Shown piece by piece: positions 414 to 44,212 of a stretch of 44,604 nucleotides of DNA. A program made the translations under genes and the position numbers. Source of the stretch: a virus; IMG/VR virus record IMGVR_UViG_3300033149_004711, positions 1-44,604 of that record; one strand, written 5' to 3'. The notes below the pieces were generated by a model, which saw nothing but the letters and a program-made list of their open reading frames with translations, searched no databases and was not told the origin of the DNA. Each line of letters begins with the position of its first letter. Position 1 is the stretch's first letter.

Positions 414-743
414 ATGAGGTTGAAGCAACTGTGTGAACAACTCGTTGCTGAACTGCGGGAGTGGAACCCCGACAGTGAGGCGGCAAACGAGGTGGAGGAG
501 CACATCGGCAGCATCGGTGTGGTCGAAGAGGTCGAAGACCTCATAGATCGCTACGGGATCACAACCCTGATTGATGCAGTTGTGGAGGTGTGCTTCTTGA
601 AAGAGGAACACGTCCGCACAAACTGGCAAGACCACGCATTAGGGGATGCGTGGCAACGAACGGCGTTGACGTTGAAGAAGGCTTGTGAGCGGATTTCATT
701 TTTTGAAATCCCGCAAGCGGACGGAAGGAGGTGCATAGCATGA
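414..743 (+). CDS. Small acidic protein of unknown function, first rightward gene
   Basis: Encodes 109 residues. ATG 414 follows a strong AAAGGAGGTGAG site (about 399-408) and is preferred to an upstream in-frame start at 348, which precedes the ribosome binding site. The protein is helical and acidic in its middle part and has no family I recognise. As the first gene after the candidate -24/-12 promoter it is probably an early gene. Its stop overlaps the next ATG (ATGA). The first copy of the 17-bp palindrome (693-709) lies inside its 3' end and encodes the residues ISFFEI, so the C-terminus may be constrained by a DNA site. Confidence 0.85.
   Translation: MRLKQLCEQLVAELREWNPDSEAANEVEEHIGSIGVVEEVEDLIDRYGITTLIDAVVEVCFLKEEHVRTNWQDHALGDAWQRTALTLKKACERISFFEIPQADGRRCIA
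693..709. promoter_or_regulatory. 17-bp palindrome copy 1 (ATTTCA-N5-TGAAAT)
   Basis: ATTTCA-TTTTT-TGAAAT, 31 bp upstream of the ATG at 740. The flanks GCGG and CCCGC lengthen the stem, with one bulge. It is the only copy buried well inside a coding region. Likely a protein-binding site shared with five other copies. Confidence 0.8.
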
Positions 744-934
744 AGGCAACGATCGACGAAGACCTCAAGCAGCACTGGAAGTGTGTGGAGTGCGGGCACG
801 TCGAGGAGTACAAGAGGGGCGATGTGTTTCGCTACTACAACGGGCGAAGGTGCGAGTGCGGCGGGTGGATGGTTCTGGAAGGAGGTGATGATGATGGAAG
901 TGAGGGTCGCTTGGACGCCGGACGACGTCCTTGA
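740..934 (+). CDS. Small zinc-ribbon protein
   Basis: Encodes 64 residues. ATG 740 overlaps the previous stop and follows GGAGGTG at 730-ish with good spacing. Residues include CVECGHVEEY in the N-terminal third and CECGG near the middle, giving CxxC plus CxC pairs that look like a zinc ribbon. Such small ribbons in phage early regions are often regulators or host-takeover proteins; no specific function can be assigned. The C-terminus overlaps the next gene by 41 bases. Confidence 0.8.
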   Translation: MKATIDEDLKQHWKCVECGHVEEYKRGDVFRYYNGRRCECGGWMVLEGGDDDGSEGRLDAGRRP

Positions 935-1121
935 GGAGGCGTGGGTGTGTGGGGTTGAGATGACGAAAGAGGGTGCGGAGGTGTTGTTGAGAGAGGTCGA
1001 GGATGACCTCGTCAACGCAATGCTTGAAGCGGGGTGGGAGGTAATTAACAATGCAATCAACAATGCTCTTGACCGAGTGAAGCAAGGAGGTGCACATGAA
1101 CGGAAAACCGAGTGCGTATAG
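894..1121 (+). CDS. Small acidic helical protein of unknown function
   Basis: Encodes 75 residues. Three in-frame ATGs (888, 891, 894) follow GGAAGGAGGTG (877-887); 894 has the best spacing. The protein has acidic helices and no recognisable domain. It overlaps the previous gene by 41 bases and the next by 26, consistent with translational coupling in one operon. Confidence 0.8.
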   Translation: MEVRVAWTPDDVLEEAWVCGVEMTKEGAEVLLREVEDDLVNAMLEAGWEVINNAINNALDRVKQGGAHERKTECV

Positions 1122-1320
1122 CACTGCATTGAGTTTGTGTAAACGTATGGGCGTGCCATTCCACCACGCCTGCACCCTCCAGTTGTTGGGTGAGGCGTGC
1201 TTGATGAGGTGGCACGCCATCGTGACCACACTCATCGAGAGTGGGGAGGGCGTGCCTGAGTGGCTCGCTCAACGGATTGTGGAGAGCTCATGCAAGGTGA
1301 GCGTCGATACAGAGAGGTGA
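1096..1320 (+). CDS. Small hypothetical protein, possible helix-turn-helix-like fold
   Basis: Encodes 74 residues starting MNGKPSAYST; AAGGAGGTG lies at 1083-1091. The first half reads as two short helices around LCKRMGVPFHH, but no clear DNA-binding motif can be named. Unknown function; operon position suggests an early accessory gene. Confidence 0.8.
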   Translation: MNGKPSAYSTALSLCKRMGVPFHHACTLQLLGEACLMRWHAIVTTLIESGEGVPEWLAQRIVESSCKVSVDTER

Positions 1321-1326
1321 GTGTAA

Positions 1327-1548
1327 ATGTTCGAGTGCGGGTATTGTGGTCGCAAAAGTGAGAAGCTGTTGGTTGTGGGGCTCGTTGTGATGGGGGAGTT
1401 GACGAGTGAGTTTTCCTTCCATCCCAAAACGAGCCGCACCGCAACCCAGCAGTGGTTTGTGTGCCCGCACTGCGGCAAAACGGTGTTCAACTCACTCGGG
1501 GAGTTGAAGGGGTGGGTTGAGCAAAAGGTGAAGGGGGGTGTGGTGTGA
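1327..1548 (+). CDS. Zinc-ribbon protein
   Basis: Encodes 73 residues. CGYCGRK at residues 4-10 and CPHCGK around residue 47 form two CxxC knuckles of a classical zinc ribbon separated by a beta-rich spacer. GAGGTGAG precedes ATG 1327. The target is unknown. One of several zinc-binding small proteins in this operon. Confidence 0.82.
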   Translation: MFECGYCGRKSEKLLVVGLVVMGELTSEFSFHPKTSRTATQQWFVCPHCGKTVFNSLGELKGWVEQKVKGGVV

Positions 1549-1763
1549 ATAGCAACAGCAAAAGCAAACATCGTGCTCGCCACATCGAACTCCACCACGC
1601 ATTTGAAGAGTTGGTGGAGGACTGGAGGTATCACACCCAACCCAGCCGTGGAAAGGGGTTGGGGGAGGGGACGGTGTGGGCGAGGGCGGTGAGGGAGTTG
1701 TGGAATTGGTCACAGCGCCAGTGCATTGAACCTGATGCTGTGACCGAGGAGGAGTTAGAGTGA
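1545..1763 (+). CDS. Small basic protein of unknown function
   Basis: Encodes 72 residues from a GTG start that overlaps the previous stop (GTGTGA). Basic N-terminus (SKSKHRARHIE), acidic C-terminus (TEEELE), with tryptophans in a probable helix in between. No family recognised. Overlaps the next gene by four bases. Confidence 0.75.
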   Translation: MNSNSKSKHRARHIELHHAFEELVEDWRYHTQPSRGKGLGEGTVWARAVRELWNWSQRQCIEPDAVTEEELE

Positions 1764-1981
1764 AGCATCTTCACATTGAGGTAGAGGACGCCCTCTACGC
1801 ACGAATAAAGCGGCGTTGTCGCTTCAAAGGTGAGATGTCGCATCTTGTGCGGAGGGCACTGGTGGAGTTTTTTTGTGTGCCTCCAAGCCGTCGGAAGACT
1901 GTGGAGAGCGTGCAACGGCCTTCGGCCGAACCGGTGGAAGGCACACCGACAGAGGAAGGGGTTTTGTGTGAAAAGAGTTGA
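1760..1981 (+). CDS. Ribbon-helix-helix-like small protein
   Basis: Encodes 73 residues from GTG 1760, preceded by GAGGAGG. The first 38 residues (KHLHIEVEDALYARIKRRCR and the following HLVRRALVEFF) fit the CopG/Arc pattern: a short strand with alternating residues, then two helices. Such proteins bind palindromic DNA as dimers, so it is a possible reader of the palindromes in this genome. The C-terminal 30 residues look disordered. Assignment rests on pattern only. Confidence 0.75.
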   Translation: MKHLHIEVEDALYARIKRRCRFKGEMSHLVRRALVEFFCVPPSRRKTVESVQRPSAEPVEGTPTEEGVLCEKS

Positions 1982-2165
1982 GATCAAGATTGGGAAAACC
2001 GTCAACCTCGGCAACTACGAATCGCTTAGAGTGGATGTTGGGTTGGCGCAGGATGTGAGGGATGAGGAAGCGATGGCAAACGTCGCGCAAGCACTGTATG
2101 CGGAGGTGACGGGGTTGCTGTCGCACTTTGTACAAAAACAACTAAGAGGGGAGGTGCCGGAGTGA
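1968..2165 (+). CDS. Conserved-looking phage protein of unknown function
   Basis: Encodes 65 residues. GTG 1968 is chosen because the protein then begins cleanly with KRVEIKIGKTVNLGNYESLR, an alternating beta pattern, and follows AGAGGAAGGGG. Similar short proteins with a GNYES(L/V)R-type motif are, as far as I recall, common in phage early regions, but I cannot name a function. Ends four bases into the next gene. Confidence 0.75.
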   Translation: MKRVEIKIGKTVNLGNYESLRVDVGLAQDVRDEEAMANVAQALYAEVTGLLSHFVQKQLRGEVPE

Positions 2166-2515
2166 TCGTTGTGATGCTAAGCGCCCCTTACGCAAACCTC
2201 ACCGAGAAGGAGCGGGAGGGGGTGAAAGGAGTGCTGCGGTTAACCAGCGAGTGGCTTTGGCAACAAGGGATTGCGTGCGTAACGCCCCACCTAAACACGG
2301 ATGGGCATGATGATGCGGCGGCGCGTGAGCACTATCTCCGTGGGTATGCAGAGATTGCGTCGCGGTGTGATGCTGTGTTGCAGGTGTGTGAGTTCGTGGT
2401 GGCTGGAGAGAGTGAGGGGATGGAGAGGGAACGGAAAGCTGCCCCACGATGGTTCAACTCCGTGGTGGAGTTGGTGAGGTGGTGGCAGGGGTTGCCAGAG
2501 GAGGTGAAGAGGTGA
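2162..2515 (+). CDS. DUF4406 / nucleoside deoxyribosyltransferase-like protein
   Basis: Encodes 117 residues from GTG 2162. The order of motifs matches the deoxyribosyltransferase-like fold: an N-terminal strand with SAPYAN, a middle region with TPHLNTDGHDD, and a central RCDAVLQVCE strand followed by SEGMERER, where members of the family place the catalytic glutamate. Relatives cleave or transfer deoxyribonucleosides, so a role in nucleotide turnover is possible. Specificity cannot be read from the sequence. Confidence 0.7.
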   Translation: MIVVMLSAPYANLTEKEREGVKGVLRLTSEWLWQQGIACVTPHLNTDGHDDAAAREHYLRGYAEIASRCDAVLQVCEFVVAGESEGMERERKAAPRWFNSVVELVRWWQGLPEEVKR

Positions 2516-2751
2516 AGGAACAGAGGATGCGCACATTTTGGTTTAAACCGTTGCACAAAGGCAATGAGTATTTGGTTGCGGTGGAGGTGTCCGGACCGAC
2601 GCAGAAACAGACGCGAAAGCGTCTTGGGCACCTCACGATGAGTCGGAGCGAGTGGGAAGGGTTGAGGGGTGTGTTGTGGTGGGCGAATATGCAGTTTGAC
2701 AAAAGGGGGAAGCTGAACGAGGTTCGCATAGACCAACGGGGGTGGAGATGA
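2512..2751 (+). CDS. Small basic hypothetical protein
   Basis: Encodes 79 residues from GTG 2512, which follows GGAGGTGAAGAG and overlaps the previous stop. Contains a basic stretch, TQKQTRKRLGH, then a helix with several tryptophans. No recognisable domain. Tightly coupled to both neighbours, each by four bases. Confidence 0.75.
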   Translation: MKEQRMRTFWFKPLHKGNEYLVAVEVSGPTQKQTRKRLGHLTMSRSEWEGLRGVLWWANMQFDKRGKLNEVRIDQRGWR

Positions 2752-3383
2752 AGGTTGCGGTTGTCTTCAACACCACACCAACGCGGGTGAGGGTGAGGGT
2801 GCGAGCCCGTTCACCCCAACTCCTCAAGCGCCTACGGCAGGCGTGTGGTGGACACACACGCACTCATCAAAACGGGGGGTGGGTGTGGGTGTGTGGTAGC
2901 CTGTGGCGGGCGAGGTGTGCGGTGAGCGTGCTACGCAACTCCAGCCTCACTGCTCCACAACGCACGATGTTGCGTAGGGCGTGGGAGGTGTTGGAGGTGT
3001 GGGGGGTGGAGAAGGTTGTGAAGGGTGCACCTTCGAGCGGGACGTTGAAGGCAATCGAGAGGTTTAAAGCGACTTATGAGGTTGCAGATAGAGGTAAGGA
3101 GGTGAGGCAACGTGCGTGTAATATTCGGGGCGGACGGGTTGACGTTTGTGGAGGGGGCGGTGCCGAAGGAGTGGCTCAACCACCCAAACCCAGACGATTG
3201 TTCGGTGATCGATGTGCAAGAGTCAGAGGTGGAGGTGGATTGGGTGGGGTTGAGGAAGAAGGTGGAAAGCTTGCGAGCAATGCGCTTGCGTCCGACAGAA
3301 AGCCGGAGTCGCGAAAGGCACAGTCGCGTAGCAAACAAACGCGATGTGCAAGCATCCTTCGATGCGCTCGTGGCAAAGGTTAA
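2748..3383 (+). CDS. Hypothetical protein, probably ends early or is frameshifted near 3100
   Basis: The open frame from ATG 2748 is 211 codons long, but its last 90 codons overlap a better-supported gene at 3112 and look like a shadow (glycine/arginine runs). Stops in the other two frames occur at 3089-3091 and 3103-3105, just before the ribosome binding site of the next gene, where a normal stop would fall. Either a frameshift (real or sequencing) occurred upstream, or the long overlap is genuine. The N-terminal 115 residues are basic, with a beta-rich start. Function unknown. Confidence 0.6.
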   Translation: MKVAVVFNTTPTRVRVRVRARSPQLLKRLRQACGGHTRTHQNGGWVWVCGSLWRARCAVSVLRNSSLTAPQRTMLRRAWEVLEVWGVEKVVKGAPSSGTLKAIERFKATYEVADRGKEVRQRACNIRGGRVDVCGGGGAEGVAQPPKPRRLFGDRCARVRGGGGLGGVEEEGGKLASNALASDRKPESRKAQSRSKQTRCASILRCARGKG

Positions 3384-3447
3384 GGGGATGTCGCAGGAGG
3401 AACTTGTGGAGTTACGGAACGTGCTTACGCAAAAGCGAGGGAGGTAG
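3112..3447 (+). CDS. Hypothetical protein with a C-terminal helical motif shared by two other genes
   Basis: Encodes 111 residues from GTG 3112, which follows a strong AAGGAGGTGAG (3096-3106). The N-terminus is beta-rich. The C-terminal 35 residues (SFDALVAKVKGMSQEELVEL) form an amphipathic helix-turn-helix that resembles the C-termini of the genes at 8846-9100 and 42699-43064. Function unknown. Confidence 0.78.
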   Translation: MRVIFGADGLTFVEGAVPKEWLNHPNPDDCSVIDVQESEVEVDWVGLRKKVESLRAMRLRPTESRSRERHSRVANKRDVQASFDALVAKVKGMSQEELVELRNVLTQKRGR

Positions 3448-3449
3448 GG

Positions 3450-3698
3450 ATGGAGTGGGATAATGATAGTTGTTGGTTGAGAGGGGCTGTTGCGGATCTC
3501 AAGGAGATGCGGGAGTTTGCGATGGAGCAGTGGAGGTTGCGCAACCCCCACAAACCAAAGCCGTTGGGGTGTGTGGATTGTGTGAGGGCAACGTGCTACC
3601 CCGACTGTGCCGGTCCGCACGACGACCCACGCATCAAACGCTTTTTGGTCACCGAAGGGACTACGTCGGTGTGGAGACTGGAGGAGGGGAGGGGATGA
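3450..3698 (+). CDS. Cysteine-containing small protein
   Basis: Encodes 82 residues from ATG 3450, preceded by GAGGGAGGTAG. Four cysteines in CVDCVRATCYPDC could bind a metal, although the spacing (CxxCx4CxxxC) is not a classical ribbon. Directly overlaps the nuclease gene that follows (ATGA), suggesting coupled expression. Confidence 0.75.
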   Translation: MEWDNDSCWLRGAVADLKEMREFAMEQWRLRNPHKPKPLGCVDCVRATCYPDCAGPHDDPRIKRFLVTEGTTSVWRLEEGRG

Positions 3699-4552
3699 TA
3701 GTTGATAACTACACACTGGCAGCGTTTAAACGTTGCCCGCGGTATTACTACTTCAGGCATGAATGCAACCTCGTACCGAAGGCGATAGCGTTAGCACCAC
3801 AATTTGGGATTGCAATCCACGCCGCACTCGAAGCGTTTTATCGGGGGAAGGGTGTGACAGAGGCTGTGAAGGCGTTCGTCGCTGCATACGCACCCACATG
3901 GAAGGATGCGGGGGGTGTGGAGGCGGACGCAAGGCGCACACCCGAAGTGGGTGCGGAGATTGTGGTGGCGTATTGTGAGCGGTTCGCAAACGACCCATTC
4001 CGCACCTATAAGGATTGTGTTGAGGTGGGGTTTGCGCTTGAGTTGTCGGAGAATGTGGTGTATTGTGGGCGGATTGATCGCATCGCAACCGTCCCGCCAA
4101 AGCTCTACGTTGTTGATTGGAAAACGACGAGTGCGCCTTGGATGTTTGTTGAGCGACCAAACGCCCAATTCACTGGGTATGTGTGGGCGTGTCGCGAACT
4201 GCTTGGTGAGGATGTGAGGGATGCTGTCGTTGACCTCATCAAGACGACGCCAGCGTCGCAAAAGGCGCAGAGGGAGGGTGTAGAGAAGTGGGGGGTGGAG
4301 CGGAAGGTTGTCACCTTCTCGCCGGAGGAGGTTGAGGAGTGGAAGTGTGAAGCACGGTGGTGGTGTGGGCAGATTGGGGGGTGTGCGAGGATAGGGGAGT
4401 GGCCGAAGAACACGGAGTCGTGCTTTATGTATAACAAGCGGTGTGAGTACATCGAGTTGTGCAACACGCACGGGGAGATGCGTGATCGCATCGTGGAAGA
4501 GCAGTTTGAGGTGAACGAATGGAAGCCGTACGACGATGTTGCTTGTGCCTAA
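3695..4552 (+). CDS. PD-(D/E)XK nuclease of the Cas4/RecB type, probable 4Fe-4S protein
   Basis: Encodes 285 residues from ATG 3695 after GGAGGGGAGGGG. Features in order: an N-terminal cysteine in FKRCPRYYYF; GIAIHAALEAFY, the family histidine motif; GRIDRIA followed by YVVDWKTT, the catalytic D and D-x-K; QFTGYVW, the QhxxY motif; and a C-terminal cluster CFMYNKRCEYIELC. One N-terminal and three C-terminal cysteines is the iron-sulfur arrangement of Cas4 and AddB-like nucleases. Such phage proteins are DNA exonucleases used in recombination or DNA end processing, consistent with the RecA-like ATPase further on. Confidence 0.88.
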   Translation: MIVDNYTLAAFKRCPRYYYFRHECNLVPKAIALAPQFGIAIHAALEAFYRGKGVTEAVKAFVAAYAPTWKDAGGVEADARRTPEVGAEIVVAYCERFANDPFRTYKDCVEVGFALELSENVVYCGRIDRIATVPPKLYVVDWKTTSAPWMFVERPNAQFTGYVWACRELLGEDVRDAVVDLIKTTPASQKAQREGVEKWGVERKVVTFSPEEVEEWKCEARWWCGQIGGCARIGEWPKNTESCFMYNKRCEYIELCNTHGEMRDRIVEEQFEVNEWKPYDDVACA

Positions 4553-4584
4553 CTGTTGCAGCGGGGGTTGCAGGGGGTGTGTGG

Positions 4585-4806
4585 ATGGGTGTAGGTGAGA
4601 TGAGTGAGTGGGCAGAGGGTGTGAAGGCACAACCGGTGAGGGAGCGGTCGAGGGAGGAGTTGGAGTTCGCGATGCGGTATCATGGTACGTATTGGGCTGT
4701 AAAGGAGGGTGGAGAGTGGTGGTTTGAACGGGGTGGGGAGAGGTGTAAGCTCTTTAACGAAAATGTGGAAAGGAGGCTAAGATGGCAACAGGGAGTGTCG
4801 AATTGA
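4585..4806 (+). CDS. Small hypothetical protein
   Basis: Encodes 73 residues if started at ATG 4585, which follows GGGGGTG. ATG 4519 (inside the nuclease gene) and ATG 4600 are alternatives. Rich in glutamate, arginine and tryptophan; no domain recognised. Its end overlaps the next gene by 25 bases. Confidence 0.68.
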   Translation: MGVGEMSEWAEGVKAQPVRERSREELEFAMRYHGTYWAVKEGGEWWFERGGERCKLFNENVERRLRWQQGVSN

Positions 4807-5066
4807 AGCCGCAGAGGTCGTCGTCCAAACCCGCCTTGATAGAGGAGCGGTTGTGGGAAGTACGCAAAGCTCTCGCAGGGTTGGTGGATGTGTGTACGGA
4901 GCTTGAAGAAGGGGTGGTGACGCAACATGAAGCCCGGGAGATGCCGCCGCCTCGACCGTTATCTGCGTTGCTCGACGCGCTGCCCGGGGAGTTGGGGAGC
5001 GTTGCTGCCGACATCTCTGGACTCGTCAGGCGGTTCAGAGAGATGTTGTTGAAAGGTGAGGTGTGA
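4782..5066 (+). CDS. Hypothetical alpha-helical protein
   Basis: Encodes 94 residues; AAAGGAGG precedes ATG 4782. Two predicted helical stretches (residues 18-45 and 58-90) separated by a proline-rich PPPRP linker. No family recognised. Confidence 0.8.
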   Translation: MATGSVELKPQRSSSKPALIEERLWEVRKALAGLVDVCTELEEGVVTQHEAREMPPPRPLSALLDALPGELGSVAADISGLVRRFREMLLKGEV

Positions 5067-5067
5067 G

Positions 5068-5229
5068 ATGTCGTTTGTGTGGCTGTTATTCTGGGAAGCT
5101 GCGCGTGCAACCCACAACGAACTCGCCGAAACGGCGTTGACGATCCTGTTTGTGTGGGTTGTGTTTGGGGATTTGTTCATCCTACGACACTTGGAGGAGT
5201 TGTGGAGATGGAAGAAGAGACGGGAGTGA
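5068..5229 (+). CDS. Micro-protein with one predicted membrane helix
   Basis: Encodes 53 residues beginning MSFVWLLFWEAARATHNELA and ending WKKRRE. A hydrophobic segment (residues 25-40, TILFVWVVFGDLFIL) and a positively charged C-terminus predict a single inner-membrane span. ATG 5068 lies one base after the previous stop and follows AAAGGTGAGGTG. It overlaps the next gene by 22 bases. Possible functions include membrane-associated takeover or superinfection exclusion, which is speculation. Confidence 0.72.
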   Translation: MSFVWLLFWEAARATHNELAETALTILFVWVVFGDLFILRHLEELWRWKKRRE

Positions 5230-5462
5230 GGCTGTTTGTCCACTACAACTGTGACGATTGTGCGCAGGCACGACGGTTGCTTGAGGATTGTGGGGTTGCG
5301 TTTGAAGTGATACCGATCGCGTCTGTGCAGGGAGTGGTAGAGTTTGCGAAGTGTGGGGGGACATGCGAGACGCCGCTACCGGCGGTGTTTGATGGCGAGA
5401 GGTTGGTTGGGGGGTTGGTGGGGGTGCTGAAGTGGTTGGATGAACGGTTAGAAAGGAGGTGA
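5208..5462 (+). CDS. Glutaredoxin-like thioredoxin-fold protein
   Basis: Encodes 84 residues from ATG 5208, preceded by GGAGGAG. VHYNCDDCAQARRLLEDCGV matches the glutaredoxin strand-CxxC-helix unit (active site CDDC at about residues 14-17). TPLPAVFDGERLVGG supplies the cis-proline loop and the conserved G. Probable electron donor, for example for a ribonucleotide reductase, but none is encoded here, so it would serve a host enzyme or a regulatory role. Confidence 0.85.
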   Translation: MEEETGVRLFVHYNCDDCAQARRLLEDCGVAFEVIPIASVQGVVEFAKCGGTCETPLPAVFDGERLVGGLVGVLKWLDERLERR

Positions 5463-5466
5463 GAGT

Positions 5467-5856
5467 GTGTGTTTAGAAAGGCTGGACAACTTTCGTATCA
5501 AACGAAAGCGTGGATGGCAGTTGTATGCGAAGGGTGAGGATGGGATCAGGCCACTTTACCTCGTGTGGCATTACGCACACTTCGGGGGGCGGCTACCGTT
5601 GAAGGAGGGAGTGTGGGAGGTTGACCCAAGACCGCATACGCACATTCTGCGAACAGTAACCGTCCAATACCCTTCTGGGTTTCATCTATTCGTTAGGAAG
5701 AAGGACGCAGTGCGATGGATGGAGTGGTTACGAGAGCGCGGTGTAGAGGTTACGATGCGGCGGGTACGCTTCAGACAGGTTGTGGCGCGTGGATGGTGGG
5801 CAGGGAAGAAGGTGGTTGTCGTGCGCGAGCGGTTTATTGAACCTTCATTGAACTGA
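5467..5856 (+). CDS. MCL-family phage protein, paralogue 1
   Basis: Encodes 129 residues from GTG 5467, preceded by AAAGGAGGTGAGAGT. It is related to the product of 6090-6578: both start M-C-L-(E/D)-(R/K)-L, then FR-x-(K/R)-R and GWQ/GYQ, and share a GFH-x-(F/Y)-x-RK-DA motif (GFHLFVRKKDA here). An all-beta fold with a C-terminal strand (KKVVVVRERF) is likely. Function unknown. Confidence 0.82.
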   Translation: MCLERLDNFRIKRKRGWQLYAKGEDGIRPLYLVWHYAHFGGRLPLKEGVWEVDPRPHTHILRTVTVQYPSGFHLFVRKKDAVRWMEWLRERGVEVTMRRVRFRQVVARGWWAGKKVVVVRERFIEPSLN

Positions 5857-5869
5857 GGAGGTGGTTGGG

Positions 5870-6100
5870 ATGCGTAGGCGCAGCTTTGTGAGGATGGTGG
5901 AGGAGTTGAATGAGTGTTGTGATCGCTCACTCTCCATCGCCAGCTATGGGGGAGAGTGGCGGTTGCATTCGTATAGAGAAGGCACGCTTTTTGCCCCTGA
6001 TGTGGGTGGTGATGTGTGGGGTGTGAGGTTGCTGCAGGTTGTGGAGGAGGCGTATCGGCGGATGATGAAGGAGAAAGGGGGTGGGATGAATGTGCCTTGA
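5870..6100 (+). CDS. Small hypothetical protein
   Basis: Encodes 76 residues. ATG 5870 is chosen over GTG 5861 because GGAGG sits at 5857-5861. Located between the two MCL paralogues and overlapping the second by 11 bases. No domain recognised. Confidence 0.78.
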   Translation: MRRRSFVRMVEELNECCDRSLSIASYGGEWRLHSYREGTLFAPDVGGDVWGVRLLQVVEEAYRRMMKEKGGGMNVP

Positions 6101-6578
6101 CAAGCTCGGGGAGTTCCGCACACGGCGAAAGGGGTATCAAGTGTTTGAGGTCAAGAATGGTGGTATTGTTCCACTTTATGCAGCGAAAGTTTATGCGTCT
6201 TGGCGTCGGGGTAATGTGTATGTTCCTATAAGGGTGTGGGAGGATGATCAGCGTGATGGGGTGGTTTTTGCGTTCGGTGCTCCGACCTACCACACTGGCT
6301 TTCACATCTACACCCGCAAGGACGCAGCGGTTGCGTTGGCACGTGACACCGCAGCCGGTTGTCGTATCGCGACGGAGGTGAGGGTGGTGGAGTTTGACGA
6401 AGTGGTTGCGAAGGGGGTGTGGAATGGAGACCGTGTGGTGGTAGCGCGGAGACGGCGGGTTGGTGAGCGGGTGTGTTGGTTTAACAGCGATGGAGAGAAA
6501 GGAGGTAATGAAGATGGCGGATTTCAGACCGAAACCGATGGTGGTTGGGGAGGTGAGTACGAAGCTGATCCCGCTTGA
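6090..6578 (+). CDS. MCL-family phage protein, paralogue 2
   Basis: Encodes up to 162 residues. The N-terminal 125 residues align with the 5467 product (MCLDKLGEFRTRRKGYQ and GFHIYTRKDAA). The last 35 or so residues (rich in G, E and D) overlap the next gene by 65 bases and may be a recent extension. The duplication with an unrelated gene between the copies implies divergence after tandem duplication. Confidence 0.8.
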   Translation: MCLDKLGEFRTRRKGYQVFEVKNGGIVPLYAAKVYASWRRGNVYVPIRVWEDDQRDGVVFAFGAPTYHTGFHIYTRKDAAVALARDTAAGCRIATEVRVVEFDEVVAKGVWNGDRVVVARRRRVGERVCWFNSDGEKGGNEDGGFQTETDGGWGGEYEADPA

Positions 6579-7398
6579 AGCGAAACAGGCGGCGTCGTTG
6601 CTCGACAAAATCATGGCAGGGGAGTTTCACATCCACGCCTTGCTTTATGGAAAGAGCGGTGCGGGGAAGACGGTTGGGTTGGGTACACTGCCGCGACCTG
6701 TGGGGGTTGTCGACCTCGCTGGGGGGCTGCTACCCTTAGCGAACGAGACGCAGGTCGAATACGTTAGAGTGCTGCCACGGGCAGCAGAGGGAGCGATATA
6801 CGTTCGAGCGTGGGAGCAAGTGCGGGAGGCGATTACGCTTTTCTCTCAACGAGATGACATAAAGTCGATTGGAATCGACGACATCACAACGTTGAGCGAG
6901 GTTGCGTTGACATACGTGCTTTGGAGCAACAACCACCTTGGGCAAAGTCCGACACAGCCCGAGTGGGGAAGGCAGATGCAGATCATAAGGGATGTGTTGC
7001 ACTTCGCGTTTGCGATGAAGAAGCATGTTGCAGCAACCGCACACCAACAATACCGTCAAGAGGAAGGGACGGGGCGTGGGTGGATGTTGCCCCTGACGAC
7101 AGGGAAGTTGGCAGACGCGTTGCCCGGCATCTTCGACGAGGTGTATCACGCGTCGTCGGAGCTGGTGACCAGCAGGGACGGGAAGCGATCGACACGCTAC
7201 CTTTGGCAAACGCGGGCTGATCGCATCTTCACCGCAAAGTCACGCTTGGGGATGTTGGGGCTAACGGAGGATGTGGAGGATGTGACGATTTCGGACATGA
7301 GGGTTCGGTGGGAGCTGCCGGAGGATGTGGGCTTCCGCAAGATCATGCGACGTGTGGAAGAGTTCCGCGCTAAGCGTGAGAAAGGAGGCGCACAGTGA
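6514..7398 (+). CDS. RecA-like phage ATPase (AAA_24 / Sak4 type)
   Basis: Encodes 294 residues; ATG 6514 lies 8 bases after AAAGGAGGT. Walker A is YGKSGAGKT at about residues 50-58. A Walker B-like strand, IKSIGIDDIT, lies near residue 115. The segment MKKHVAATAHQQYR fits the family sensor region. This family provides phage single-strand annealing or RecA-like recombination and usually sits next to a DUF669 protein, as here. Probably acts in DNA recombination with the PD-(D/E)XK nuclease. Confidence 0.85.
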   Translation: MADFRPKPMVVGEVSTKLIPLEAKQAASLLDKIMAGEFHIHALLYGKSGAGKTVGLGTLPRPVGVVDLAGGLLPLANETQVEYVRVLPRAAEGAIYVRAWEQVREAITLFSQRDDIKSIGIDDITTLSEVALTYVLWSNNHLGQSPTQPEWGRQMQIIRDVLHFAFAMKKHVAATAHQQYRQEEGTGRGWMLPLTTGKLADALPGIFDEVYHASSELVTSRDGKRSTRYLWQTRADRIFTAKSRLGMLGLTEDVEDVTISDMRVRWELPEDVGFRKIMRRVEEFRAKREKGGAQ

Positions 7399-7652
7399 GC
7401 GACGTCGTGGCAGGACTCCACCCCCGCCGCTGCCGCATCCACAGCAGGCTGGAGCATGTGTGGGGTGGGGTGTTTAAGTGTGTGTATTGTGGGTGTTATG
7501 TGCAGATCGTGATGCATGTTGAGTACACCCCCGACGAACTCGCCAACATGGCGGATGCGCTGTTGGGGGTGGAGTGTGGTAAAACAATTGAGTCGGCAAC
7601 GCCGACGGAAGAAGAAGGAGGTGTAGTATGCCAGAAATCGATGTGGGAATGA
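7395..7652 (+). CDS. Small zinc-finger-like protein
   Basis: Encodes 85 residues from GTG 7395, overlapping the ATPase stop; AAAGGAGGCG precedes it. CVYCGCY near residue 30 with an earlier RRCRIHSR may bind zinc. The C-terminus overlaps the next gene by 25 bases. Function unknown. Confidence 0.72.
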   Translation: MSDVVAGLHPRRCRIHSRLEHVWGGVFKCVYCGCYVQIVMHVEYTPDELANMADALLGVECGKTIESATPTEEEGGVVCQKSMWE

Positions 7653-8014
7653 CGCCAGAGGAGCACGAGGAGGCCGCACAGATCGAACCGCTGCCACCAG
7701 ACACCTACGATGTGGAGTTGGAGTCGGTGGAGACGCACACCAGCCAGAAGGGCAACCTTGTGTTCGACTTGCGGTGGAGGGTGATTAACCACCCCGATTA
7801 CAACAACAGAGTGCTGTTCGACCACCCGATGTGGGGTGGGCGGCAGATGCAGGCAATGATTGACGCGACGGGGTTTAGTTGGAGTGGGACGACTGTCAAC
7901 ACCGAAGATATGGTTGGGTTGTCTTGCCAAGCGGTGGTTGATGTTGAGGAGTACACACCAGAGGGTGGGAGACCGCGCAAGACGAACCGGATCGTGGATT
8001 ATGTCGCAATGTGA
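7628..8014 (+). CDS. DUF669-like protein, probable single-strand DNA-binding partner
   Basis: Encodes 128 residues; GAAGGAGGTG precedes ATG 7628. The pattern PPDTYDVELESVE, then GNLVFDLRWRV, and a C-terminal strand pair matches DUF669 proteins, which follow AAA_24 ATPases in many phages and behave like single-strand DNA-binding proteins. Expected to act with the ATPase at 6514. Confidence 0.8.
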   Translation: MPEIDVGMTPEEHEEAAQIEPLPPDTYDVELESVETHTSQKGNLVFDLRWRVINHPDYNNRVLFDHPMWGGRQMQAMIDATGFSWSGTTVNTEDMVGLSCQAVVDVEEYTPEGGRPRKTNRIVDYVAM

Positions 8015-8021
8015 GGAGTGA

Positions 8022-8152
8022 GGCCAGAGTGGCGGAATTGGTAGACGCTTGTCTCAAGGCAGATACTCACGGGCGGAGGGTCTGCAATCACAGAAGCAAT
8101 GCCCTGTCGGAGTTGTAAAGCTGCTGTGCGGGTTCGAGTCCCGCCTCTGGCC
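8022..8152 (+). tRNA. Abnormal Leu-type tRNA-like gene, 131 nt
   Basis: Acceptor GGCCAGAG (8022-8029) pairs perfectly with CTCTGGCC (8145-8152): 8 bp, one more than normal. Next come TG, a D arm GCG-GAATTGGTAGA-CGC (8032-8048) typical of tRNA-Leu, and a T arm GCGGG-TTCGAGT-CCCGC (8128-8144). The anticodon arm is odd: TGTCT/AGATA closes a six-base loop CAAGGC, so CAA (8055-8057, Leu) after T8054 is only a candidate. The variable region (8066-8127) is 62 nt, with an inner TCTG/CAGA hairpin. No CCA is encoded. It may be a degenerate tRNA, an intron-bearing tRNA or a tRNA mimic. Confidence 0.65.
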
Positions 8153-8155
8153 TTT

Positions 8156-8191
8156 GGAGGTAACAAAATGAAAGCCCTCCTCGGGGGGTAG
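8156..8191 (+). promoter_or_regulatory. Leader minigene (7 codons) with self-pairing ribosome binding site
   Basis: GGAGG (8156-8160) is followed by ATG 8168 and seven codons, MKALLGG, ending at TAG 8189-8191, five bases before the next gene. CCTCC inside the minigene (8176-8180) can pair with the GGAGG. Translation of the minigene could control re-initiation at ATG 8196. Confidence 0.5.
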
Positions 8192-8195
8192 AGTA

Positions 8196-8585
8196 ATGAG
8201 TTGGAATCCCGAAAAAGAAGTTCCAAGTTTGGAACTGTGTAAGAAGTTAAGAGAGCTTGGTTATCCTCAAGATGGAGGTGGTCTGTATTGGAATACGAGA
8301 GAAGGCAGAATAGCTATCATAAGACCGTGGAAAAGCTTTAAAGCTCCAAAGCACTTTGTTAAAGCTCCCACTTGCCGAGAGTTGGGGGAGTGTTTGCCTT
8401 CGTTTGTGCACGAGGCGAAGGACGAAAAACAAAAATATCGTATCGGGAATGCAAACTTGGTGGATGATCCGTGGTTTGAGTCTGACACTGAACCCAATGT
8501 TCGTGCTGAAATGCTGATTTGGTTAGTGGAGAATGGATGTGTCAAGTTTTTTGTGCTAAGGCGTGATAAGGATGATGACAGCTAA
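8196..8585 (+). CDS. Phage hypothetical protein between two tRNA-like genes
   Basis: Encodes 129 residues. ATG 8196 follows GGGGGG and the leader minigene. The start, EVPSLELCKKLRELGYPQ, and the tryptophan- and tyrosine-containing beta region after it are of a type I associate with widespread small phage proteins of unknown function. Base composition differs from its neighbours: the strong G+T bias of the coding strand is absent and the gene is richer in A. With a tRNA-like gene on each side it looks like a recently acquired cassette. Confidence 0.85.
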   Translation: MSWNPEKEVPSLELCKKLRELGYPQDGGGLYWNTREGRIAIIRPWKSFKAPKHFVKAPTCRELGECLPSFVHEAKDEKQKYRIGNANLVDDPWFESDTEPNVRAEMLIWLVENGCVKFFVLRRDKDDDS

Positions 8586-8636
8586 GGGAGCACCCCACCA
8601 CCACAACCCGATGGAGGTGAGGGGGTGGGAGTGGAA

Positions 8637-8782
8637 GGACGGAGTGGCGGAAAAAGCGGCCACAGGCCGCGGTAGACGCTGCGAACACGAGTCGGGGAGC
8701 CACACCTCGTTAGGTCAGGAGCGTAGGGGACTGCTACTCGTGGCTGAAGGTCCCCGTGGGGGTTCGAATCCCCCCTCCGTCC
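8637..8782 (+). tRNA. Abnormal tRNA-like gene with a hairpin inserted in the D loop, 146 nt
   Basis: Acceptor GGACGGAG (8637-8644) pairs perfectly with CTCCGTCC (8775-8782), again 8 bp. The T arm is GGGGG-TTCGAAT-CCCCC (8758-8774). The D arm has the same GCG...GGTAGA-CGC frame as the first tRNA-like gene, but the loop carries a perfect hairpin GCGGCC-ACA-GGCCGC (8656-8670). A variable-arm stem GGGGAC/GTCCCC spans 8726-8755. Between them, TGCG/CGTA (8680-8683/8722-8725) encloses an ACGAG/CTCGT hairpin, so the anticodon cannot be read with confidence. No CCA is encoded. Unlikely to be an ordinary decoding tRNA. Confidence 0.6.
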
Positions 8783-8845
8783 CTGCGCGCAACGCGCGTG
8801 TGCGGCACATGCTGCGAAAATCCTATAATGAAAGGAGGTGAAAAA

Positions 8846-9100
8846 GTGAGAGAAGTTGAGGTTAAGAGTAAGGGAACGGTTGTTGGGGTGGTGGATGTGC
8901 CCGAAACCATGGATGAAGTGATGGAGTTGGATGCGGAGAAGGTCGTGCGGTGGGTTGCAAGGGGGATTGTTGAGGATGCACGAAGAGCGGCGTCTCGACC
9001 ACGCCCACTGAGCGAGGATGCGAAGGCGTTGGCGAAAAGGTTCGACAGCTTGTCGCCGGAACAGCGTGAGCAGATCGCTCAGATTTTGGGTGCTATGTAA
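8846..9100 (+). CDS. Hypothetical phage protein with shared C-terminal helical motif
   Basis: Encodes 84 residues from GTG 8846 after AAAGGAGGTGAAAAA (8831-8845); the ATG at 8828 lies upstream of the ribosome binding site and is rejected. The N-terminus is a beta pair (VEVKSKGTVVGVVDVPETMD); the C-terminus, LAKRFDSLSPEQREQIAQIL, resembles those of genes 3112 and 42699. Followed directly by a strong terminator, so it ends a transcription unit. Confidence 0.82.
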   Translation: MREVEVKSKGTVVGVVDVPETMDEVMELDAEKVVRWVARGIVEDARRAASRPRPLSEDAKALAKRFDSLSPEQREQIAQILGAM

Positions 9101-9108
9101 GGCGGTGG

Positions 9109-9140
9109 GGGAGTTGTGTGCAATGCACACACTCCCTTTT
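9109..9140 (+). terminator. Rho-independent terminator of the first rightward unit
   Basis: GGGAG-T-TGTGTGC, loop AAT, GCACACA-CTCCC, then TTTT: a 12-bp stem with a single bulged T, followed by CGTTGTTT. It starts eight bases after the stop of the 8846 gene. The following replication genes therefore need read-through or a new promoter, and a palindrome copy comes immediately after. Confidence 0.85.
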
Positions 9141-9152: not shown

Positions 9153-9169
9153 ATTTCAATAAATGAAAT
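9153..9169. promoter_or_regulatory. 17-bp palindrome copy 2
   Basis: ATTTCA-ATAAA-TGAAAT, placed 13 bp after the terminator and 36 bp before the groES start. A second small hairpin, CGGCA-AGCA-TGCCG, follows. The position suits an operator or promoter element of the replication operon. Confidence 0.85.
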
Positions 9170-9205: not shown

Positions 9206-9493
9206 ATGAGACTAATCCCGTTGCAAGATAGGGTGATTATACGAGAAGTTGAGGGTAAGAACCGCACGAAGGGCGGCATTTGGTTGCCCGACACCGCTGT
9301 GGATAGGCCGGAGGTTGGGGTTGTGCAGGCTGTCGGACCGGCTGTGCGGGAGGGGTTGATTGAAGCTGGAGCGAGGGTTGTGTTTGGGAAGTATGCGGGG
9401 GCTGACATTGAAGTTGGAGGAGTGAGGTTGTTGATTGTGAGGGAGGATGATGTTCTTGCATACATCGAGGAAGGAGAGTGTGATGAGGATTGA
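9206..9493 (+). CDS. groES: GroES-like co-chaperonin
   Basis: Encodes 95 residues, the normal GroES length. ATG 9206 gives MRLIPLQDRVIIREVE, the classical N-terminal strand. The mobile loop KNRTKGGIWLPDTA and the following VGVVQAVGP strand are typical; the C-terminal DDVLAYIE matches the family end. It would cap a GroEL ring, presumably the host's since no GroEL is encoded, as T4 gp31 does for capsid folding. Unlike those cases it sits in the replication operon rather than the head module. Overlaps the next gene by 11 bases. Confidence 0.95.
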   Translation: MRLIPLQDRVIIREVEGKNRTKGGIWLPDTAVDRPEVGVVQAVGPAVREGLIEAGARVVFGKYAGADIEVGGVRLLIVREDDVLAYIEEGECDED

Positions 9494-10715
9494 ACGTGTT
9501 TCGCTTGAGAGTGTTAGGGTTGGCGAGAGAGTGAGGGAGGATGTTGGGGATCTCAACGCGCTTGCGATGTCGATAAAGCGGTATGGGTTGGTGCATCCGA
9601 TTGTTGTTGATGGTGAGGGCAACCTCGTTGCGGGGTTTAGGCGTTTGCGTGCGTGTGAGATGTTGGGGTGGGAGCAGATTGATGCACATGTTCTTGACGA
9701 TGTGGATGAGCTTGGGTTGCGTGAGATAGAGCTTGTCGAGAATATCCAACGAAAGGACTTGGAGTGGCCGGAAAAGGTGAAGAGTGTGCGGGAGTTGTAT
9801 AGGTTGATGCAAGAGAAGCATGGGACGAGTGGGAGGGGGTATGTTGGAGGGTTTGGTGTGCAGGAGCTCGCAGCACTGCTTGGGGTGAGTGTTGGCACAG
9901 TCAGCCAAGACCTACAGCTTGCAGCATTGATTGAAAAAGTTCCGGAGCTGGCGAGTGTAGAGAAGAAGACGACTGCGCTTCGCAAAGTGAAGAAGATGAT
10001 GGATGTTGCGTTGAGGGAGAAACGTGTGGCAGAGCGCTCGGAGATGCCGGAAGGGGTTGTGTTTGTGAACGAGGATTGCAGGGCGTTTATGCGGAGGTGT
10101 GTTGATGAGGGTAAGAAGTTCCATTGTTGCGTGACAGACCCACCTTGGGGGGTTGACCTCGGCGACCTGCGCTTTCAAGAAGCCAACACGGAGTGGGACG
10201 AACAGCAACACGCCCTTGAGTTGATGGAGGAGGCGTTTGGACTGCTTGATCAGGTGTTGGTTGAGGATGCGCATGTTTATGTCTTCTTCGCGATGCGGAA
10301 TTATGATCGGGTACACCGCATGTTGGCGAAGCGGTGGGATGTTGACTGGCTACCCCTAATTTGGAATAAGAGGGTTGGGTCATCCACGATGGTTGTCGAC
10401 CAGAAGTATGTTTCGGCTTATGAGACGATCTTCTTTTGCAAGAAGGGTACGGGTCGCAAGCTCGCCCAACGCACGTCGAACGTCTTCACCTACGACCGCG
10501 TCAGCAAACCCATCCACCCCACACAAAAACCCGTCCAACTGCTTATGCAGTTCATTGAGAACAGCACCGTGCGCGGCGAGAGCGTGTTTGACCCCTTCGC
10601 GGGGAGTGGGAGCACGCTTCGTGCAGCACGGAAGCTCGACCGCGTTGCGGTTGGGTGTGAGAGTGATGAGGTGATGTATGCAAAGGCGTTGGAGATTGTG
10701 GAGGGGGGTGAGTGA
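9483..10715 (+). CDS. ParB/HTH domain fused to a DNA (N4 or N6) methyltransferase
   Basis: Encodes 410 residues from ATG 9483 (GAAGGAGAG upstream). Residues 1-100 are a ParB/Srx-like domain with VVDGEGNLVAGFRRLRA and ENIQRKDL. Residues 125-145, VQELAALLGVSVGTVSQDLQ, are a KorB/ParB-type helix-turn-helix. Residues 195-405 are an amino-methyltransferase with the catalytic DPPW at 219-222 ahead of the AdoMet motif VFDPFAGSGSTL, so beta-class order. It probably methylates adenine or cytosine in phage DNA, protecting it from restriction or marking it. Having both ParB boxes and an HTH suggests targeting to specific sites. Confidence 0.92.
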   Translation: MRIERVSLESVRVGERVREDVGDLNALAMSIKRYGLVHPIVVDGEGNLVAGFRRLRACEMLGWEQIDAHVLDDVDELGLREIELVENIQRKDLEWPEKVKSVRELYRLMQEKHGTSGRGYVGGFGVQELAALLGVSVGTVSQDLQLAALIEKVPELASVEKKTTALRKVKKMMDVALREKRVAERSEMPEGVVFVNEDCRAFMRRCVDEGKKFHCCVTDPPWGVDLGDLRFQEANTEWDEQQHALELMEEAFGLLDQVLVEDAHVYVFFAMRNYDRVHRMLAKRWDVDWLPLIWNKRVGSSTMVVDQKYVSAYETIFFCKKGTGRKLAQRTSNVFTYDRVSKPIHPTQKPVQLLMQFIENSTVRGESVFDPFAGSGSTLRAARKLDRVAVGCESDEVMYAKALEIVEGGE

Positions 10716-15655: not shown

Positions 15656-15672
15656 ATTTCATTTAATGAAAT
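15656..15672. promoter_or_regulatory. 17-bp palindrome copy 3
   Basis: ATTTCA-TTTAA-TGAAAT, 15 bp upstream of the ATP-grasp start on the minus strand. The TGA stop of the preceding gene (15659-15661) lies inside it. Flank GCGG matches copies 1 and 6. Confidence 0.85.
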
Positions 15673-24264: not shown

Positions 24265-24281
24265 ATTTCAATTATTGAAAT
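24265..24281. promoter_or_regulatory. 17-bp palindrome copy 4
   Basis: ATTTCA-ATTAT-TGAAAT, 20 bp upstream of the 24244 start on the minus strand. The TAA stop of the upstream membrane-protein gene lies in its spacer. Confidence 0.85.
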
Positions 24282-34429: not shown

Positions 34430-34489
34430 GGGTGTGAGGGGCGCGTGTGCGCCCCGAATTTCATTCAATGAAATCCAGCCCTCACGCCC
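34430..34489. other. Nested inverted repeats around capsid stop and palindrome copy 5
   Basis: GGGTGTGAGGG (34430-34440) pairs with CCCTCACGCCC (34479-34489): 11 bp with one G-T. The loop contains GGGGCGC-GTGT-GCGCCCC (34438-34455) and palindrome copy 5. The outer and inner stems share bases and exclude each other. The capsid stop (34482-34484) is in the outer stem. No U-tract, so attenuation, mRNA 3' protection or partial termination is more likely than a classical terminator. Confidence 0.6.
34458..34474. promoter_or_regulatory. 17-bp palindrome copy 5
   Basis: ATTTCA-TTCAA-TGAAAT in the 71-bp gap after the major capsid gene, 47 bp before the next start on the minus strand. Confidence 0.85.
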
Positions 34490-43245: not shown

Positions 43246-43746
43246 TTAGAAGTCCGCTTCAGCTCGGACTTCCCGCAAGGCTTGTTCTTCAGCCTTGCGG
43301 ATTAGGTCACTATACTTGACCCCTTTCGGGGTCTTGTATATAGTGACCTTGAGGTCAGACTCGTAGTCCGACCCCTCCCAATCATGTAGGTGTTTATACA
43401 CCCACACGATATAGACGACCCTGTCTGGGTCGTCCAACCGGGAAAGGGATTCCAGCACGGACTCCCCTTCCCAGGTTTTTCGTTGGGAGTAGGCATAATT
43501 GCTGCCCCACTCCCCTGCCTGACTGACAGCATCCTGCAAGATGCTGCCGTCAGCCATGACGAAATGCACCGACTCCTTTGAGTCAGTGCGTCCCATGCTC
43601 CCGTCCCAGTAATACTGGGATGGGATACAAGCGAGCAGATTTTCATCCGCTCGCTTAACCGTGATGGAGTCGGCATTGCCGACCCCGTCGAGTTCCCGTA
43701 AGAACGGGAACTCTTTAAAAAACCCTTCCAGCTTAAACTTATTCAT
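43246..43746 (-). CDS. Accessory protein whose coding sequence is tiled with hairpins
   Basis: Encodes 166 residues; GAAAGGGGGTTTTT precedes ATG 43746. First gene of the leftward block. No domain recognised; acidic and aromatic residues alternate (VVYIVWVYKHLHDWEGSDYE). Fourteen consecutive stem-loops cover 43250-43713, many perfect over 7-10 bp (see findings). The G+T coding bias is absent. Could be an early takeover gene, or a sequence under strong RNA-structure selection. Confidence 0.82.
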   Translation of the reverse strand: MNKFKLEGFFKEFPFLRELDGVGNADSITVKRADENLLACIPSQYYWDGSMGRTDSKESVHFVMADGSILQDAVSQAGEWGSNYAYSQRKTWEGESVLESLSRLDDPDRVVYIVWVYKHLHDWEGSDYESDLKVTIYKTPKGVKYSDLIRKAEEQALREVRAEADF

Positions 43747-43847
43747 AAAAACCCCCTTTCTTTGTGCCCCCGTGCACCGCAGAGGGGAGCAGGTTGATAA
43801 TCTTTTTCCCCCTGCAAAGGGGAAAAATTTTATTTGCCTTCATATAC

Positions 43848-43864
43848 TGCATTATCCATGCCAA
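43848..43864 (-). promoter_or_regulatory. Candidate sigma-54 (-24/-12) promoter for the leftward block
   Basis: The minus strand reads TTGGCATGGATAATGCA. GG and GC doublets are 12 bp apart, and the first 8 bases plus the upstream ATC are identical to the rightward promoter candidate at 343. Predicted start near 43836, with about 90 bases of leader to ATG 43746. The -12 element is ATGC instead of TTGC. Confidence 0.58.
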
Positions 43865-43896
43865 GATCACGCTTAGCGCAAATTTTTCAAAAAGCT

Positions 43897-43907
43897 TAAT
43901 GATTTCA
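43897..43907 (+). repeat. TAATGATTTCA box 3, upstream of the leftward promoter
   Basis: Lies about 32 bp upstream of the -24 element of the leftward promoter, mirroring the box at 310 near the rightward one. Confidence 0.6.
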
Positions 43908-44002
43908 GCATGATAGAAACTTCCCGGATCATCCCAAAATCCCCTTGCAAGCCCCAAAAGCTCAAAACCGTCCCCCAAAAGCAAGGGAGGGGTGTAAGGC
44001 AT

Positions 44003-44013
44003 TGAAATCATTA
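44003..44013 (-). repeat. TAATGATTTCA box 4 (reverse)
   Basis: Reverse-complement copy, TGAAATCATTA, in the left half of the region. Confidence 0.6.
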
Positions 44014-44195
44014 AGCCTTTTGCTTGCCGCAAATCGTCACTCTCTGCCAAAAAATGCTCGCTCACCCCGCTTTCCCAAAAAGCCTTGCGCTCACCCCAAT
44101 TGCATTCTTACAATGCCCCACAATGCACCGCAAGGCACGTTGCGTGCCCAAACGGTGGAGGGCGCAGAGGGTGGAGGGCGACGTTGGGTGAGCGG

Positions 44196-44212
44196 ATTTC
44201 ATCGATTGAAAT
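44196..44212. promoter_or_regulatory. 17-bp palindrome copy 6
   Basis: ATTTCA-TCGAT-TGAAAT with the GAGCGG flank also found at copy 1. It lies in the putative origin region with no gene start nearby, unlike the other copies. Confidence 0.85.

What the first reader, a model, noticed from the sequence alone, without database searches (positions are those of the whole stretch)
693..44212. Six dispersed copies of a 17-bp palindrome ATTTCA-N5-TGAAAT
Copies at 693, 9153, 15656, 24265, 34458 and 44196 have identical 6-bp arms and exactly 5-bp spacers of differing sequence. By chance, 12 fixed bases are expected about 0.003 times in 44.5 kb. Five lie 15-47 bp before a gene start; the sixth is in the putative origin. 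Two contain the stop codon of the upstream gene and one lies inside a gene's 3' end. Spacing between most copies is 6.5-10 kb. Invariant arms with a free spacer are the signature of a dimeric DNA-binding protein: an operator series like mycobacteriophage stoperators, or a partition/condensation-type site.
Basis: partly seen in the sequence, partly recalled or inferred. Interest (0 to 1): 0.82.

Follow-up and report, generated by a model that had tools for sequence, protein, structure and literature searches.

The report
Evenly spaced phage ParB loading sites
This phage carries six evenly spread copies of a short mirror-image DNA sequence that most likely serve as landing pads for its own ParB-like clamp protein fused to a DNA-methylating enzyme; about twenty related phages carry the same arrangement with their own versions of the sequence, so it looks like an unrecognised way for a phage to mark or coat its own genome.

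Summary
The six ATTTCA-N5-TGAAAT copies are real, exact and far beyond chance. They are one case of a wider pattern. Among 46 related phage genomes, 21 have a dispersed dyad series of 4-13 copies. Most have their own arm sequence, but the geometry is shared. One distant relative, G018, has the same arms. The sites lie in intergenic gaps, no nearer to starts than to stops in wide gaps, with uncompensated arm changes. They are spaced more evenly than random in all 21 genomes. This argues against promoters, operators and RNA hairpins. The best candidate binder is the phage's own ParB_N-HTH-adenine methyltransferase (9450-10715). It is the only HTH protein shared with G018. None of 9 genomes without it has a clear series. 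Its HTH resembles Noc/ParB. The known ParB-family half-site of VirB and P1 ParB box A is this same arm. Cluster O mycobacteriophages, with a 17-bp dyad of unknown function and a ParB_N-HTH protein, fit too. I read the sites as parS-like loading sites for a ParB-methyltransferase clamp; clamp and methylation steps are untested.

The parts
693..709 (.). dyad site 1, ATTTCA-TTTTT-TGAAAT, in the 3' end of ORF 414-743 and 30 bp before ATG 740
9153..9169 (.). dyad site 2, ATTTCA-ATAAA-TGAAAT, 36 bp before the GroES-like gene (9206) and 280 bp before the ParB-HTH-MTase gene
15656..15672 (.). dyad site 3, ATTTCA-TTTAA-TGAAAT, 15 bp before the ATP-grasp gene (14390-15640, minus strand)
24265..24281 (.). 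dyad site 4, ATTTCA-ATTAT-TGAAAT, overlaps the stop codon of ORF 24272-24466 and is 20 bp before gene 23423-24244
34458..34474 (.). dyad site 5, ATTTCA-TTCAA-TGAAAT, just after the major head protein gene (34482-35387, minus strand)
44196..44212 (.). dyad site 6, ATTTCA-TCGAT-TGAAAT, in the long noncoding region between the divergent gene arms
9450..10715 (+). ParB_N-HTH-N6/N4 DNA methyltransferase, the proposed reader of the sites (true start may be the ATG at 9483)
   Evidence: Pfam ParB_N and N6_N4_Mtase; Noc/ParB matches; model with pLDDT 87
9513..9749 (+). ParB_N domain, residues 22-100, with CTP-box-like motifs SIxxxGxxxP and GxRRxRA
   Evidence: motif definitions from PMC10653881
9858..9938 (+). 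ParB-type helix-turn-helix, helices at residues 137-144 and 148-163
10047..10712 (+). adenine-N6 methyltransferase domain, residues 200-421, with DPPW and DPFAGSG motifs
   Evidence: closest solved folds M.BceJIV, M1.HpyAVI and CcrM, Z about 25

Best explanation
The six palindromes are parS-like nucleation sites for the phage's own ParB-family protein, the ParB_N-HTH-methyltransferase at 9450-10715. A dimer would bind one site through its two HTH domains, one per ATTTCA arm. By analogy with ParB, Noc, KorB and VirB it would then close as a CTP-dependent clamp and slide into the flanking DNA. One site every 6-10 kb lets clamps cover the whole 44-kb circle, so the attached methyltransferase (and the protein coat) acts on phage DNA in preference to host DNA. 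Shown here: the site series, its geometry and even spacing, its link to this protein family, and the match of the arms to published ParB-family half-sites. Inferred: that this protein binds the sites. Inferred by analogy only: CTP clamp, sliding, and self-directed methylation.
For: (1) 21 of 46 related genomes have such a series. Of 35 genomes with the ParB-HTH-MTase, 20 have one; of 9 without it, none is clear (Kuura borderline); Fisher about 0.002 (my arithmetic). The exception, G014, is a partial contig that begins at the polymerase, just past where the gene lies in relatives. (2) G018, the only other genome with the same arms, shares five proteins with the window by tblastn, and only this one has an HTH. 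(3) VirB binds ATTTCAGtATGAAAT and P1 ParB box A is (A/G)(A/T)G(G)AAAT (PMC6410309): the same half-site. (4) The protein matches Noc/ParB through the HTH and has SIxxxGxxxP and GxRRxRA motifs. (5) Core half-sites lie in one register from the dyad centre in the odd-centred genomes; genomes with a longer HTH loop have even-centred sites. (6) Residues 148 and 149, at the start of the recognition helix, covary with core bases. (7) Even spacing in 21 of 21 genomes. (8) Cluster O phage Firecracker has a ParB_N-HTH protein and a 17-bp dyad series with TGTTC in the same register. (9) Phage ParB_N-MTases without the HTH (Twister6, Blautia phage) occur in genomes without a series. (10) A site lies within 280 bp upstream of the ParB gene in 7 of 20 genomes, including the window.
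Against: 15 genomes with the ParB-HTH-MTase have no series that I could detect. The HTH covariation is post hoc and confounded by descent; a whole-region similarity scan did not single out the HTH. The window's arms are 5 bp apart, against 3 in the VirB site, and 2 bp inserted there weakened VirB binding. The acidic residues of both CTP boxes are replaced (A and F). Firecracker gp94 has no methyltransferase, so methylation cannot be the whole purpose in all such phages. No binding, CTP or methylation data exist.
Confidence: 0.66

Rival explanations
1. The ParB-family protein reads the sites, but as a KorB-like global regulator: it sits at or slides to promoters and represses or times phage operons; the methyltransferase is incidental.
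For: KorB of RK2 is a CTP clamp that silences promoters up to 1.5 kb from its operator (PMC11790492). Many sites lie 10-40 bp before a start codon. Terminase small subunit genes have a site upstream in 5 of 9 genomes, and the ParB gene itself has one close by in several.
Against: In tandem gaps the sites hug the upstream stop (median 13 bp) more than the start (31 bp), and in wide gaps only 12 of 35 are nearer the start. Even spacing is not needed for operators. Sigma-70-like promoters in window 1-20000 are no more frequent than in shuffles and none lies at a site.
Confidence: 0.2
2. The sites are operators or stoperators of a separate, fast-diverging phage repressor (immunity-type), as in L5-like phages.
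For: Dispersed intergenic sites whose sequence differs between relatives, as in Cluster A mycobacteriophages.
Against: Stoperators are asymmetric and oriented with transcription; these are symmetric. No integrase or repressor was recognised, and no other HTH protein is shared between the two genomes with identical arms.
Confidence: 0.08
3. The palindromes act as RNA hairpins in mRNA leaders (translation start, processing or stability).
For: Inverted repeats just 5' of ribosome-binding sites; in G040 the spacer carries a GGAG next to the start.
Against: Arm changes are not compensated: 357 deviant arms, but only 10 sites with the matching change on the other arm. Several series have a 1-base centre, poor for an RNA loop. 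Sites also occur inside genes and far from starts.
Confidence: 0.03
4. Sites for a host factor (a bacterial regulator) that each phage has adopted from its own host.
For: Relatives, presumably with different hosts, have different arm sequences.
Against: The shared register of the core and the link to a phage protein family point to one phage-borne reader.
Confidence: 0.03

Closest known systems
Cluster O mycobacteriophage 17-bp repeats (Corndog, Firecracker; PMC4351075)
   Same: Dispersed, invariant-arm dyads with an A/T-rich spacer, 17 bp; a ParB_N-HTH protein in the same genome; TGTTC in the same register as in G024 and G026; authors judged a transcription role unlikely
   Different: More than 30 copies per genome, a third inside genes; the ParB protein has no methyltransferase; arms TGTTCGG; unrelated phage
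VirB and P1 ParB sites (PMC6410309)
   Same: Half-site ATTTCA/TGAAAT; ParB-family HTH; inverted repeat needed for VirB
   Different: Arms 3 bp apart; sites regulate virulence promoters or serve partition; not spread evenly over a phage genome; no methyltransferase
Noc with its dispersed NBS sites, and ParB with parS (PMC7383237, PMC8429893)
   Same: ParB_N and HTH homologous over residues 4-191; dispersed sites that nucleate CTP-dependent spreading
   Different: Bacterial chromosome proteins with a C-terminal domain other than a methyltransferase; arms nearly adjacent
KorB operators of plasmid RK2 (PMC11790492)
   Same: ParB-family clamp that loads at palindromic sites and acts at a distance from them
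   Different: Plasmid partition and repression with KorA; no methyltransferase
Stoperators of Cluster A mycobacteriophages (PMC6550527)
   Same: Many intergenic sites per phage genome; sequence diverges between relatives
   Different: Asymmetric 13 bp, oriented with transcription, bound by an immunity repressor in temperate phages

Membership tests
ParB/parS-type system | ParB_N domain in the putative reader | tested here: met
   Pfam ParB_N 4e-10; Noc/ParB chains at 1e-10 to 1e-12
ParB/parS-type system | CTP boxes ELxxSIxxxGxxxP and GERRxRA | tested here: inconclusive
   Window has ALAMSIKRYGLVHP and GFRRLRA: frame kept, acidic residues replaced; G62 and R65 invariant in 36 relatives
ParB/parS-type system | ParB-type HTH | tested here: met
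   Noc alignment runs through the HTH; model helices 137-144 and 148-163
ParB/parS-type system | palindromic site with ParB-family half-site | tested here: met
   ATTTCA/TGAAAT equals the VirB icsP site arms and fits P1 box A, but with a 5-bp spacer
ParB/parS-type system | ParA partner | tested here: inconclusive
   No ParA among the window proteins scanned; not every protein was scanned; VirB also works without ParA
ParB/parS-type system | sites clustered near the origin or par locus | tested here: not met
   Sites spread evenly over the circle
ParB/parS-type system | CTP-dependent clamp closure and sliding | not testable with these tools
   needs biochemistry
Stoperator series | asymmetric site oriented with transcription | tested here: not met
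   perfect dyads
Stoperator series | cognate immunity repressor in a temperate phage | tested here: inconclusive
   no integrase or repressor recognised, but most small proteins have no family match
Start-associated sequences (Cluster K) | asymmetric 13-bp repeat tied to translation starts | tested here: not met
   symmetric; in wide gaps 12 of 35 sites nearer the start than the stop
Cluster O-type dispersed dyads | 17-bp dyad with invariant arms and A/T-rich spacer, dispersed | tested here: met
Cluster O-type dispersed dyads | ParB_N-HTH protein in the genome | tested here: met

The most novel reading that the evidence does not exclude
A phage uses dispersed parS-like sites to load a ParB clamp fused to a DNA methyltransferase, which then slides along and methylates only DNA that carries the sites: a self-recognition system that marks the phage genome and spares the host's, with each phage lineage evolving its own password sequence.
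Probability: 0.3. Interest if true: 0.92.

Novelty: new variant of a known kind. Interest (0 to 1): 0.76.

Why it matters
ParB proteins are known as CTP-driven DNA clamps for chromosome and plasmid segregation and, in a few cases, gene control. A large group of phages that put such a module on a DNA methyltransferase, with evenly spaced cognate sites that differ from phage to phage, would extend the ParB/parS principle to phage genome marking or coating. It would also offer a testable answer to the 17-bp repeats of Cluster O mycobacteriophages, whose function was left open in 2015. The set of about 14 arm sequences with their cognate HTH domains is a natural data set for how ParB-family DNA recognition diversifies.

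Tried and rejected
RNA hairpin: rejected on uncompensated arm changes. Start- or promoter-associated element: the first impression from median 22 bp to the start was undone by the equal closeness to upstream stops and by wide gaps. N4-like hairpin promoter read by a virion RNA polymerase: the large virion protein 15846-19073 has no Pfam match, the sites precede late as well as early genes, and no support was found. Ribbon-helix-helix protein at 1760: no relatives in series genomes. Terminase small subunit as reader: recognised in only 9 of 17 series genomes in the first clustering and not in the window. A Mantel-type scan for the specificity region was inconclusive. Generic ParB_N-MTase phages tested as an outgroup: Parageobacillus, Blautia and Twister6 genomes show no series; Vibrio phage D93 shows a different clustered motif. 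In the structure comparison only the methyltransferase part was effectively tested; ParB structures did not appear there although the sequence search finds them. A search for papers on the phiC31 conserved inverted repeats found none in the library. Viral scans with single polymerase and portal sequences found no relatives.
Full report
Observation. The motif ATTTCA-N5-TGAAAT occurs six times, at the six stated places, with no mismatches; shuffled sequence gives 0.01 on average. No further copy exists with one or two mismatches. An unbiased scan over all gapped palindromes (arms 5-7, spacer up to 20) returns this family as the strongest in the genome (log10 P -18.5 against about -4 for the best shuffle). 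The record has a 114-bp terminal repeat, i.e. a complete 44,490-bp circle, so the last and first copies are 987 bp apart across the junction; the other spacings are 6.5-10.2 kb.

The phage. My gene calls and Pfam/PHROG searches show a phage with an early arm (exonuclease, AAA ATPase, GroES, ParB-methyltransferase, UDG-polymerase A fusion, DUF3987) on the plus strand and a late arm (virion proteins, portal, terminase) on the minus strand. The host is unknown. Annotated relatives are ctLwi270 (MW202554), Desulfofustis phage LS06-2018-MD01 (OP947158), vir526 (BK063670), Mel-JY34, Kuura and ctMlz233.

Relatives have their own series. The Desulfofustis phage has GTCCCAA-N1-TTGGGAC, six exact and three near copies, dispersed just as in the window. 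I then fetched 80 loci with a related polymerase from viral contigs, took the whole sequence of 39 records and scanned 46 genomes in all. Seventeen have a strong dispersed series, each well beyond shuffled sequence; a mismatch-tolerant intergenic scan adds four. Examples: GTTCAAT-N1-ATTGAAC, TGTTCA-N5-TGAACA, GGTAAAT-N1-ATTTACC, TTGAATA-N5-TATTCAA, GGTTAAT-N1-ATTAACC, CTAATTAC-N5-GTAATTAG, TTATG-N4-CATAA. One record, G018, carries the window's own arms (four exact copies and one near); its polymerase is only 36% identical, so the motif is kept over a long distance.

Shared geometry. Aligned from the dyad centre, the core half-sites occupy the same positions (about 2-8 from the centre) in the odd-centred genomes, with a second, outer box at 9-12. 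Six genomes have even-centred sites with the outer box at 12-15; these are the ones whose ParB-like protein has a longer loop in its HTH region.

What the sites are not. Changes in one arm are not matched by the compensating change in the other (357 deviant arms, 10 matched sites), so they are protein half-sites, not RNA stems. The sites lie mostly in intergenic gaps (14 of 159 inside genes), and the median of 22 bp to a start codon reflects the small gaps: they are on average closer to the upstream stop (13 bp) than to the start (31 bp), and in wide gaps only 12 of 35 are closer to the start. Their spacing around the genome is more even than random in all 21 genomes tested (combined P 4e-11 against uniform and 1e-23 against random intergenic placement, both overstated because some genomes share ancestry). 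Even coverage fits loading or coating sites better than operators.

Which protein reads them. Of the proteins that the window shares with G018, only the ParB_N-HTH-methyltransferase carries a DNA-binding HTH. Of 35 genomes with this protein 20 have a series; of 9 without it none is clear (Kuura, in GC-rich sequence, is borderline); Fisher P is about 0.002 by my arithmetic. The window protein is homologous to ParB, Spo0J and Noc through the HTH. Its model is confident (pLDDT 87) and its C-terminal half matches adenine-N6 methyltransferases M.BceJIV, M1.HpyAVI and CcrM, with the catalytic DP(P) motif kept in 36 relatives. Residue 148, at the start of the recognition helix, is lysine in exactly the three genomes with a G:C pair at core position 5, and residue 149 is glycine in all seven CTT-core genomes and one of seven others; among about 1,900 columns of six proteins such associations are rare, though not unique. 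Residue 148 aligns with position 173 of ParB/Noc, one of the four published specificity residues (PMC7383237; the alignment is mine). This covariation was found post hoc and a region-wide test was inconclusive; I count it as suggestive only. In 7 of 20 genomes, the window included, a site lies within 280 bp upstream of the ParB gene.

Literature match. VirB, a CTP-binding ParB relative, binds 5'-ATTTCAGtATGAAAT-3', and P1 ParB box A is (A/G)(A/T)G(G)AAAT (PMC6410309; PMC10653881). These are the window's arms, with a 3-bp instead of a 5-bp spacer. Cluster O mycobacteriophages carry more than 30 copies of TGTTCGG-N3-CCGAACA with unknown function and a ParB-like protein (PMC4351075). That protein in Firecracker is ParB_N plus an HTH related to the ones here (26% over 174 residues, E 4e-8) but without a methyltransferase; TGTTC lies in the same register as in G024 and G026. 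Phage ParB_N-methyltransferases that lack the HTH (Twister6, Blautia phage) sit in genomes without a series.

Mechanism and likelihood. Step 1, a dimer of the ParB-HTH-MTase binds each palindrome: likely (about 0.75-0.8). Step 2, the site loads a CTP clamp that slides into flanking DNA, as for ParB, Noc, KorB and VirB: plausible by homology; the CTP boxes are recognisable but their acidic residue is replaced in the window protein. Step 3, even spacing serves full coverage of the phage genome, for methylation of self DNA, protection or compaction: inferred. Firecracker's lack of a methyltransferase suggests that coating or organisation may be the general function and methylation an addition in this group. 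A KorB-like regulatory role remains the main rival.

Limits. Gene calls are from a simple script; the fetched records are unnamed environmental phages; 15 genomes with the protein show no series that I could detect; no experiment has tested any step.

Noticed in passing
window 44319-44422 and 25-128: Imperfect 104-nt inverted repeat (72%) whose arms face each other across the circle junction, in the long noncoding region between the divergent arms; possible origin or divergent promoter region.
   Followed up: no
window 28201-28484 and 30684-30967: Two 284-nt stretches 72% identical, the 5' parts of two tail-fibre-like genes: a duplication.
   Followed up: no
window 9115-9131: Intrinsic-terminator-like hairpin (TGTGTGCAATGCACACA followed by a T-rich run) just upstream of site 9153 and the GroES gene.
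   Followed up: no
window 10807-13167: Uracil-DNA glycosylase domain fused to a family A DNA polymerase; the fusion is shared by most of the relatives found.
   Followed up: partly
L216 (Vibrio phage D93, record 29443-79442): Five to six copies of ATATTA-N7-TAATAT between about 50 and 72 kb of the record; that phage has a ParB_N-methyltransferase without HTH and an annotated transcriptional regulator.
   Followed up: no
DesulfP (L018), G016, G024, G030, G039: A site lies upstream of the terminase small subunit gene in 5 of the 9 series genomes in which that gene was recognised.
   Followed up: partly
G024 14339/14379 and 43320/43360; G039 19484/19530: Paired sites 40-46 bp apart, unlike the single sites elsewhere.
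   Followed up: no
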